Assembly: GCA_034401795.1 (NCBI GenBank) | Contig: CM067373.1 | Span: 91,346,996 to 91,410,995, forward strand | Length of the DNA: 64,000 bases | From: Chaetoderma sp. LZ-2023a | Lineage: Eukaryota > Mollusca > Caudofoveata > Chaetodermatida > Chaetodermatidae | Reading direction: 5' to 3' | Part shown: positions 11,101-14,100 of the stretch, piece by piece | How positions within the stretch are numbered: the first letter of the stretch is position 1 | Layout: each line of letters opens with the position of its first letter | The notes under the pieces: generated by a model | What the model was told of the DNA's origin: nothing | What the model saw: only the letters and a program-made list of their open reading frames with translations | Databases searched by the model: none | Program-made: the position numbers and the translations under genes

Positions 11101-14100
11101 GATTTTTTTTAGTCAGTAATCTTGGATTTACTACTCGCTACTCTTTAATTAATGGCATGAACGATTTCAACGAAACTTGGGTGGAATGATCCTATCTATG
11201 GTGGTGGGCTTGAACATATCAACCAAGAATTTTGACTTATCAAGTTCTTTGGTTGCATCTTTGGATTTTTTTTAAATTATCCATCATGTCTATTTAAATG
11301 CAAATGGTTCAAACACTAATGGTTCAGGTGAGCATCACAGGCCCTTGGGCATGTTGTTTAAAAATTTATCACTGGAATGATTGCCTCGATTATCGAAGCA
11401 GTCATTCCAGTGGGAGATTTTTTAAAAGGTCTAGGCCTGTGAATTGTTAGTTCAAGACCACTGCAAAGGCCAATTTTGACTGGTTTCACACTTAAGGGGT
11501 TGAGAGAATACACGGACACAGTGTTATGATAATAATTTGAATTCTGACTCAAATTCTTAGGTAATTGAGGATACACATTACCAGTACCTTTTTATACCCT
11601 GCCAATTTTGCGGGGTATTATGTAATGGCGCCGTCCGTCCAGGCGGGTGGGCGTGCGGGTGGCAGAGTGGGTTCCGAATGATAACTCCGTTACCGTTTGT
11701 CGGATTGCATTGAAATTTCATAGGGTGGGTGGACTACATCTTGGGAAGAAACCTATCTAAATCGACGATGATCCGAAATCCAAGATGGCCGCCAGCCACT
11801 ATCGGCCATCTTGAAAATCGGTTTCCGGATGATAACTCCGTTACCGTTTGTCGGATCGCATTGAAACTTCATAGGGTGGTGGGACTAGGCTTGGGGAAGA
11901 AGCCTATCGAAATCGACGATGATCCAAAATCCATGATTGCTGCCAGCCACCGGCAGCCATCTTGAAAATTGGTTTCCGGATAATAACTCTGTTACCATTT
12001 ATCGGATCGCTTTGAAACTTCATAGAGTGGTTGGACTGAGTCTGAGGAAGAAAGCTATCGAAATCGACAATAATCCGAAATCCAAGATGGCCGCCAGCCA
12101 CTAGCGGCCATCTTGAAAATTGGTTTCCGGATGATAACTCCGTTACCGTTTGTCGGATTGCATTGAAACTTCATAGGGTGGTGGGACTAGGCCTGGGGAA
12201 GAAGCCTATCGAAATCGACGATGATCCAAAATCCAAGATTGCTGCCAGCCACCGGCGGCCATCTTGAAAATTGGTTTCCAGATGATAACTCCGTTATCGT
12301 TTATCGGATCGCTATGAAACTTCATAGGGTGGTTAGATTACCTCTGGGGAAGAAACTTGTCGAGATTGACAATGATCCAAAATCCAAGATGGCCGCCACC
12401 CACAGGTGGCCATCTTGAAAATTGGTTTCTAGATGATAACTCTGTTATCGGATCGCTATGAAATTTCATAGGGTGGTTCGACTACCTCTGGGGGAGAAAC
12501 CTATCGAGATTGACAATGATGTGAACTCCAAGATGGCTGCCAGCCACCGGTGGCCATCTTGGAAATTGGTTTCCAAATGATAACTCCGTTACCGTTTATC
12601 GGATCCCTTTGAAACTTCATGGGGTGAGTGGACTAGGTGTGGAGAAGAAGCCTATCGAAATTGACGATGATCCGAACTCCAAGATGGTCGCCAGCCATGG
12701 GCTGCCATCTTGCAAGTTGGTTTCTGGATTTCATTTATTTGATCACTTCCTATGTTTGTTGGAATATGTCTGGTGAAGAAACTTATCGAAATTTACGATA
12801 ATCCAAAATCTAATATGGCCGCCAGTCAGCGGCAGCCATCTTGAAAATTGGTTTCCGGACGATACCTCCTTGACCTTTTAACAGATCGCTTTGACACTGC
12901 ATACGGATGACTGGTCTGATGGGGCTGAGGAAGAAATAAATATTTTCTGATAGCTCTCATTCATTGGTTTGTCATCATGGCGGGGTATTATGCGCCATTT
13001 GCGGAGCTCTTGTTTTAAAAATATGAACATGTAGACGTCATTTTATTGGTGTGTTGTTTGTTTCAGCACCACATGTGATAGAAAGTTTCTTGCGCCTCAA
13101 TAAATGGGAGCGTCCTACTGTCCCACAAGCTCTCAAGTTTTCATGGCTCAAGGTTACAAAGTCTTCTCGCCATCCATCCTTTACCTGAACCTCTCTAAAA
13201 AAGAACTTTTTAGTTTATCATCTACGACTCTTTTTGCATAGCATAGAAGTACTATGAAGAGGTGCCTGATATTCACAAACCTTAAAGCTGACCTGCAAAG
13301 TTTTTAAATAACAATATATTCGTACTCCACATGTGGCAATAAGTATGTATAATTTCTTCACATAAAACGCAACATTCTTCAAGAATCTAAGTTTAATACG
13401 AGAACAGAATAATCGCTTTTATCGCTTATCGTGTTACTATGTCATAGTGAGTGAGATGATCACACAAGTTTTTTCCATGGTAACGTTTGTTTGGTGTTTG
13501 TCTGCTATCGATGTTGCCGTATTTGACAAGATTGTCGGGTTGAAAGATGAAGCCTTTATGACATCGTAATTAATATCCAGAAGTGATTTCAGCAAAAGAA
13601 AGACTTGTCATTTGGACATCACTTTGCGATCAGCAGCACTAATGGAGAAAGCTCGTACTAAATAGATGTCCATAGAAATTGTCCTAAATGAATAGGATAA
13701 TCTGCTTTTGAGCTTAGATTATGGTGCTTCCCGACTGGTTACATTAATGAAAATTACAGGCTTTGTGATACTATTTATTCTCAATACCTCTGAACTAAAA
13801 ATGAGCGAACGGTTGAAAAGCCTTGCAGGTTACTTTTAAGCACTATTGTATGTTATACTTCCAATGGCAACCTCATGCACCTCTTCTAGTGCTTAGCTTG
13901 ATTTCAACACTTATCCTAACTCCATTAATCCTTCGTTGCTCCAGATTGGTCCAAAAAAATTTTTGTGCTTATTTAGCTGTTTGCCTGCTGAATTTCTGCA
14001 GACTACATTTTCCATGGAGTTTAACTCTGAACATGCTGAATATTCAGCAGGTCCAGAGTTATTGCCCATTGAAGTTATTGTCTGGTGGCTTGTAGCAGTC

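What the first reader, a model, noticed from the sequence alone, without database searches (positions are those of the whole stretch)
13067..13152. Candidate mutually exclusive exon for the end of the PRKD kinase domain
Seen: an 86-nt open block with a strong acceptor, the same entry and exit phases as exon 5 (15335-15420), the same 28 residues and the same subdomain XI landmarks, including the invariant Arg and the Trp-Leu of the last helix. Only seven of 28 residues are identical. Established: PKDs normally have one form of this segment, and mutually exclusive exons in tandem often have equal length and phase. Inference: the gene can swap the last kinase helix bundle, changing stability, substrate docking or tail contacts. 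The weak donor (AAG|gttaca) could make it the minor form.
Basis: partly seen in the sequence, partly recalled or inferred. Interest (0 to 1): 0.78.

Follow-up and report, generated by a model that had tools for sequence, protein, structure and literature searches.

The report
Second kinase-end exon in PRKD gene
An animal's protein kinase D gene carries a second, very different but clearly kinase-like version of the exon for the last part of its catalytic domain, built so that only one of the two can be used at a time, although no RNA evidence was available to show that it is used.

Summary
Window 13067-13152 is an 86-nt AG...GT block, open in the right frame, with the entry phase (1), exit phase (0) and 29 codons (counting the split Ala) of PRKD exon 5 (15335-15420). 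Its kinase likeness is not chance: it adds 20.4 Pfam Pkinase bits (exon 5: 25.2; seven controls: 0.4-2.7). On a profile of 27 kinase segments from the same genome it scores 25.2, exon 5 27.0, the next of 371 equal-sized AG-GT blocks -21.2; 0 of 5,999,914 random windows reach it. Using both exons or neither breaks the frame. It was found once in the 2.44-Gb genome. Best reading: a tandem-duplicated, mutually exclusive exon that swaps kinase subdomain XI. Not shown: splicing, tissue use, conservation. Against: the donor is weak (top 21% of GTs), and the block is no closer to exon 5 than to other kinases: 14 of 29 segments match it better as protein, 7 of 29 as DNA. Origin by duplication therefore rests on place and borders, not on sequence. 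An unused relic is the main rival.

The parts
5027..5125 (+). PRKD exon (called exon 1 here): catalytic loop HCDLKPEN
   Evidence: splice borders; Pfam Pkinase; own-genome match
6531..6615 (+). PRKD exon 2: DFG and activation loop
7525..7600 (+). PRKD exon 3: APE motif and following helix
9578..9684 (+). PRKD exon 4: helix G region, ends after base 1 of the Ala codon (phase 1)
13067..13152 (+). candidate alternative exon for kinase subdomain XI (helices H-I), 86 nt, phase 1 in, phase 0 out
   Evidence: kinase-like, open, same borders as exon 5
13061..13066 (+). acceptor end TTTCAG of the candidate exon
   Evidence: top 2.5% of AGs in the window
13153..13158 (+). weak donor GTTACA of the candidate exon
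   Evidence: top 20.9% of GTs in the window
15335..15420 (+). PRKD exon 5, canonical subdomain XI, 86 nt, weakish donor GTATTT
20200..20409 (+). PRKD last exon, C-terminal tail, stop TGA at 20407-20409

Best explanation
The block is a tandem duplicate of PRKD exon 5, now extremely diverged, kept as a mutually exclusive alternative exon. The pre-mRNA splices exon 4 to either 13067-13152 or 15335-15420 and then to exon 6. Both choices give an intact kinase and tail that differ only in 28 residues of helices H-I (subdomain XI). Exclusivity is enforced at least by the reading frame: each exon is 86 nt with phases 1 and 0, so using both puts a stop codon in exon 5, 74 nt before the last junction (probable nonsense-mediated decay), and using neither puts a stop early in the last exon and loses the end of the kinase. 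The alternative form keeps the fold anchors (Leu9, Arg16, Thr18, Trp27-Leu28) but replaces most of the surface next to helix G, so it would tune stability, dimer release or substrate contact. Shown: homology to kinases, phases, frame logic, no second copy found. Inferred: origin by exon duplication, that it is spliced, that both forms are functional.
For: Pfam Pkinase rises from 127.4 to 147.8 bits with the candidate and to 152.6 with exon 5; seven control segments give 127.8-130.1. Own-genome kinase profile: candidate 25.2, exon 5 27.0, next of 371 blocks -21.2, 0 of 5,999,914 random windows. Identities to exon 5 at codon positions 1, 2, 3 are 13, 19, 6 of 29 (chance 7-8), and 0 of 20,000 codon shuffles reach the second-position value, so it was shaped as a kinase protein. 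Neutral decay to 50 or fewer of 86 identical bases keeps its kinase likeness in 0 of 4000 runs per level, starting from exon 5 or from the more typical CHK2-like exon. Frame logic. One match in the genome as protein and as DNA; no second PRKD gene seen. Both borders equal exon 5's, found in 1 of 29 other kinase segments. It meets published search criteria for such exons: similar length, same phase, relative BLOSUM score 28/149 = 19%, threshold 15%.
Against: No RNA evidence. The donor is no better than one GT in five. Similarity to exon 5 is what any kinase gives: BLOSUM 28 against 46 to 2 for 29 other segments, 37 identical bases against a mean of 36.1, second positions 19 against a mean of 17.3. 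So nothing in the sequence ties it to exon 5, and a duplicate would have had to diverge as far as separate kinase families. No exact complementary 15-mers join the two introns beside it, though palindromic-repeat copies at 11357-11426 and 14525-14594 on either side are 73% complementary. Conservation is untested: no related animal genome could be searched.
Confidence: 0.56

Rival explanations
1. Relic: it was once a working alternative exon, kept under selection for a long time, and has recently lost use, with the donor now too weak to be recognised.
For: Weak donor GTTACA; candidate (25.2) scores below all 27 profile kinases, which range 32.4-64.1 leave-one-out, though those were picked by similarity to two probes.
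Against: Frame, acceptor and kinase anchors are intact; exon 5, which should be in use, also has a weakish donor and scores almost as low (27.0).
Confidence: 0.22
2. Captured exon: a subdomain XI exon of another kinase gene was carried into this intron, and may or may not be used there.
For: 14 of 29 other kinase segments match it better than exon 5 does as protein and 7 of 29 as DNA (best 47 of 86, a CDK-like segment by eye); the CHK2-like exon, which has the same borders, is also slightly nearer than exon 5 (42 against 37 bases, BLOSUM 40 against 28). A 151-bp tandem-repeat array ends 160 bases upstream.
Against: No other match in the genome at E up to 10 as protein or E up to 1 as DNA (the protein search did not return even the nearest kinases, so only a recent source is excluded). 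Flanks 13005-13066 and 13153-13560 match nothing else in the window at E 0.001. Landing in the intron next to the matching exon, on the right strand and phase with both borders identical, would be a large coincidence.
Confidence: 0.1
3. Alternative last exon: transcripts read through the weak donor and end after the in-frame stop at 13186-13188, making a PRKD without its C-terminal tail.
For: The frame stays open for 11 more codons ([11 protein letters not shown]) and then stops; the donor is weak.
Against: Of four poly(A)-like hexamers searched in 13060-15334 there are two sites: one at 13099 inside the exon, before the stop, and one at 14791, about 1.6 kb downstream.
Confidence: 0.06
4. Poison exon: the block is included together with exon 5 to switch the transcript into nonsense-mediated decay.
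For: Joint inclusion gives a stop 74 nt upstream of the last junction.
Against: A poison exon has no need to encode a kinase segment in frame.
Confidence: 0.05
5. Chance: an intronic stretch that happens to look like the end of a kinase.
For: By BLOSUM to exon 5 or CHK2 alone, 1 of 13,985 open shuffled blocks did as well.
Against: Profile scores: 0 of 5,999,914 random windows, best 10.2 against 22.9; Pfam gain 20.4 bits against 0.4-2.7 for controls.
Confidence: 0.01

Closest known systems
PRKD (protein kinase D) exon for subdomain XI
   Same: Same length, phases and kinase landmarks
   Different: 28% identical; lacks exon 5's VKMRKR and VDKS stretches and has NKWERPT and PQAL, nearer to many other kinases than to PRKD
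CHK2-like gene of the same genome (C12:53631398, L039/L063)
   Same: Its subdomain XI exon has the same two borders, 86 nt
   Different: Donor appears to be GC, not GT; no second copy of the segment in 9.9 kb around it
FYN mutually exclusive tandem-duplicated exons
   Same: Kinase gene with a swapped homologous exon (PMC9741552, passages)
   Different: Covers the SH2-kinase linker and the start of the kinase domain, not its end
Drosophila Phosphorylase kinase gamma mutually exclusive exons
   Same: Kinase gene annotated with two mutually exclusive exons (PMC3228551, passages)
JNK and p38 alpha mutually exclusive kinase-domain exons
   Same: Swap of part of the kinase domain by tandem homologous exons (recalled, no call)
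   Different: Other subdomains, other kinase group, higher similarity between the two exons (recalled)

Membership tests
Mutually exclusive (tandem duplicated) exon pair | similar length, compatible splice sites, same reading frame, no in-frame stop | tested here: met
   86 and 86 nt, AG/GT, phases 1 and 0, open; criteria from passages of PMC3228551
Mutually exclusive (tandem duplicated) exon pair | sequence similarity of at least 15% of the self score (BLOSUM62) | tested here: met
   28/149 = 19% with the shared Ala, 24/145 = 17% without; close to the threshold
Mutually exclusive (tandem duplicated) exon pair | each transcript contains exactly one of the two | not testable with these tools
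   no RNA data; only the frame argument
Mutually exclusive (tandem duplicated) exon pair | common origin of the two exons | tested here: inconclusive
   borders and place fit; neither residues nor DNA single out exon 5
Protein kinase domain, subdomain XI (Pfam PF00069) | completes the profile to its last position | tested here: met
   exons 1-4 plus candidate match profile 107-263 of 263, 147.8 bits; the 29 residues alone give no Pfam hit and no PDB hit
Protein kinase D gene | catalytic exons and tail of PKD type | tested here: inconclusive
   kinase domain by Pfam, CHK2 the best solved relative, exon 5 24 of 29 identical to recalled human PRKD1; no annotated PKD sequence was in the collections searched, so the name rests on recall

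The most novel reading that the evidence does not exclude
An animal lineage runs two PRKD enzymes from one gene by swapping the last two helices of the kinase C-lobe. The two exons are as far apart as exons of separate kinase families, and the alternative form is nearer to many other kinases than to PKD, so it could set a different threshold for release of the autoinhibited kinase dimer.
Probability: 0.42. Interest if true: 0.7.

Novelty: new member of a known kind. Interest (0 to 1): 0.5.

Why it matters
If used, it shows that even the core end of a kinase domain can be exchanged by splicing with only 28% identity, and gives a natural pair of PKD catalytic domains for separating fold-keeping residues from regulatory ones. 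PKD's kinase domain forms an autoinhibited face-to-face dimer that relies on acidic residues of helix G (human PKD1; PMC9962925, passages). By recalled human sequence that helix lies in the constant exon 4 here, and the swapped segment follows it directly.

Tried and rejected
Chance was tested with several nulls and rejected. The first, BLOSUM to exon 5 or CHK2, was weak and is reported as such. The Pfam control covered 5 of the 87 open control blocks (the five highest by BLOSUM) and two non-exonic stretches. A first profile used kinase segments recalled from memory; it was replaced by one from the animal's own genome. For that, 29 places were compiled from the two searches answered with loci (38 matches, 28), counting repeated places and the C921 and C1260 duplicates once. 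Left out: 7 weak places that had no locus and were not, and 6 partial copies in a tandem array. Two of the 29 (one with a stop, one matching only from residue 5) were dropped before the profile was built. The places came without loci and were not used.

The neutral-decay test is strict when started from exon 5, because exon 5 itself scores only 27.0; started from the CHK2-like exon (60.0) 885 of 4000 runs still pass at 70 of 86 identical bases, 26 at 60, 0 at 50 and below. The BLOSUM version passed 795, 155, 15, 2 and 0 of 3000 at 70, 60, 50, 43 and 37. I first took the codon-position pattern as a sign of an old exon 5 pair; one search shows the same pattern against unrelated kinases, so it now counts only for kinase coding. 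On that ground I lowered the best reading from 0.60 to 0.56 and the novel case from 0.45 to 0.42, and raised capture from 0.06 to 0.10.

A nested kinase pseudogene was looked for: tblastn of PRKD and CHK2 fragments on the window gave only the six PRKD exons at E below 0.01. RNA pairing: no exact 15-mer complements between the introns flanking the candidate, 23 across exon 5 and 1 across both, the listed ones across exon 5 lying at or beside palindromic-repeat copies; imperfect repeat pairs flank both exons. Conservation: scans of viral and prokaryotic contigs found no relative; these are not animal collections, so this says nothing. Rfam: no match. Literature: ten searches; in the titles and abstract starts listed I saw no paper on alternative subdomain XI exons in PRKD. 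Three listings were cut (8 of 12, 10 of 15, 10 of 68). Passages of four papers were read, no whole paper.

Full report
What is there. The window holds the 3' part of a protein kinase D (PRKD) gene on the + strand: exons 5027-5125, 6531-6615, 7525-7600, 9578-9684, 15335-15420 and 20200-20409, the last with the stop codon. Exons 1-5 match Pfam Pkinase with 152.6 bits, and the closest solved kinase is CHK2. The name PRKD rests on recalled human PRKD1. The window lies on a 179-Mb contig of a 2.44-Gb genome. A search of that genome with the six-exon protein scored 150 of 189 candidates and listed 64 matches: six are these exons, and the other 58 are kinase-like stretches of at most 56% identity, so no second PRKD gene was seen. 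One further upstream exon was found about 32 kb before the window (L017, 40 kb searched with a recalled probe).

The candidate. 13067-13152 has an AG before and a GT after it, and with a G in front, the last base of exon 4, it encodes [29 protein letters not shown], aligned without gaps to exon 5 [29 protein letters not shown]. Eight of 29 residues and 37 of 86 bases are identical. Spliced between exons 4 and 6 it gives an open protein to the normal stop.

Is it more than chance? Yes. Of 371 AG-86-GT blocks on both strands it is second only to exon 5 by BLOSUM against three references and by two profiles. With a profile from 27 kinase segments of the same genome it scores 25.2 bits, exon 5 27.0, the third block -21.2; none of 5,999,914 random windows of the same dinucleotide make-up reaches it, the best being 10.2 against 22.9 without the first residue. 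The Pfam Pkinase score rises by 20.4 bits when it is added to exons 1-4, against 0.4 to 2.7 for seven controls: five of the 87 open control blocks, the highest by BLOSUM, and two non-exonic stretches. Alone it is too short to be found: no Pfam and no PDB hit. Plain similarity to exon 5 is much weaker evidence: two non-exonic stretches of the window exceed it when splice sites are ignored, and 1 of 13,985 open shuffled blocks matched it.

Has it been under selection? Against exon 5 it shares 13, 19 and 6 of 29 bases at codon positions 1, 2 and 3; chance is 7 to 8. Of 20,000 codon shuffles 920, 0 and 14,801 reach these values; position 2 against 3 gives Fisher p = 0.0012. The same pattern holds against 29 other kinase segments (mean 17.3 at position 2, 9.3 at position 3), so it marks a kinase-coding history, not a special tie to exon 5. 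A kinase exon left to decay does not stay this kinase-like: 0 of 4000 runs at 50 or fewer of 86 identical bases, starting from exon 5 or from the CHK2-like exon. So the block encoded a kinase segment under constraint for most of its history. This does not say whether the constraint still holds.

Where did it come from? Sequence does not tell. Among 29 kinase segments of the genome, 14 score above exon 5 (28) against the candidate, from 46 (a CaMKII-like segment) down to 2. As DNA, 7 of 29 share more than the 37 of 86 bases that exon 5 shares, the best 47 and the CHK2-like exon 42. Swapping it in lowers the best PDB score to CHK2 from 138.9 to 124.0 bits but raises that to a CaMKII (3kk9) from 108.7 to 112.0. 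Place and borders do speak: by my reading, 3 of 29 segments have an intron at the same phase-1 position, and only 1, the CHK2-like gene, also has the same downstream border, apparently with a GC donor. The candidate sits in the intron just before the matching exon, same strand, right phases. No other match was found in the genome as protein or DNA (one first-look candidate each, and the protein search did not return even the nearest kinases, so only a recent source is excluded). Tandem duplication of exon 5 with extreme divergence remains the best account; capture from another kinase is a real rival. Looking for second subdomain XI segments near other kinases, 59 fetched loci (212 kb, some overlapping) gave one place, present on two contigs, with a short tandem array of partial copies, and 9.9 kb around the CHK2-like exon gave none.

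How it would work. Each exon is 86 nt, phase 1 in and 0 out. One or the other gives the full protein; both give a stop 74 nt upstream of the last junction; neither gives a stop ending 20 nt into the last exon. The introns are 3382, 2182 and 4779 nt, so steric blocking between the two exons is not the reason. No exact pairing element was found across the candidate, though imperfect palindromic-repeat pairs flank both exons. In a human survey 60% of mutually exclusive clusters contain exons not divisible by three, as here (PMC5740500, passages). Both exons have weaker donors than the rest of the gene part seen here, the candidate most of all, which fits regulated choice but equally fits a dying exon. 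In protein terms the fold anchors stay (Leu9, Arg16, Thr18, Trp27, Leu28) and the surface changes. In human PKD1 the inactive kinase dimer uses acidic residues of helix G (PMC9962925, passages); by recall that helix is in constant exon 4, so the swap would act next to the interface rather than in it. This last step is inference.

Verdict. Observation confirmed, interpretation partly supported. I put 0.56 on a functional mutually exclusive exon, 0.22 on a relic, 0.10 on capture, and the rest on minor rivals. In ten literature searches, of open-licence papers only and partly cut listings, I saw no paper on such a PRKD exon. It would be a new member of a known kind. RNA data and one related genome would settle it.

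Noticed in passing
window 11668-12906: Tandem array of about eight 151-bp units (70-94% identical to the reference copy), ending 160 bases before the candidate exon; the motif GCGGGGTATTATG stands near both ends (11610 and 12980).
   Followed up: partly
window, 33 merged places, e.g. 15837-16024, 7066-7249, 22756-22944: A palindromic repeat family of up to about 190 bp; copies on either side of exon 5 (15045-15089 with 15862-15906, 93%) and of the candidate (11357-11426 with 14525-14594, 73%) are complementary.
   Followed up: partly
L021/L042 (C18:1044151) and L022/L043 (C921:228709): A MAPK-like kinase segment (by eye) followed by three partial copies spaced about 103 bp apart (ending NPDKCITAEEALKHPYVA), present on two contigs.
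   Followed up: partly
L039, CHK2-like gene at C12:53631398: Its subdomain XI exon has the same two borders as PRKD exon 5 and an apparent GC-AG intron after it (AAG|gcaaga).
   Followed up: partly
window 10279-11107: Second tandem array, unit about 161 bp, 5.3 copies, in the same PRKD intron.
   Followed up: no
window 25411-26442, 43164-49501, 53955-56412, 59581-60537: Open frames that look by eye like Tc1/mariner transposases, a Gypsy-type LTR element and a LINE; labels from reading the translations only.
   Followed up: no
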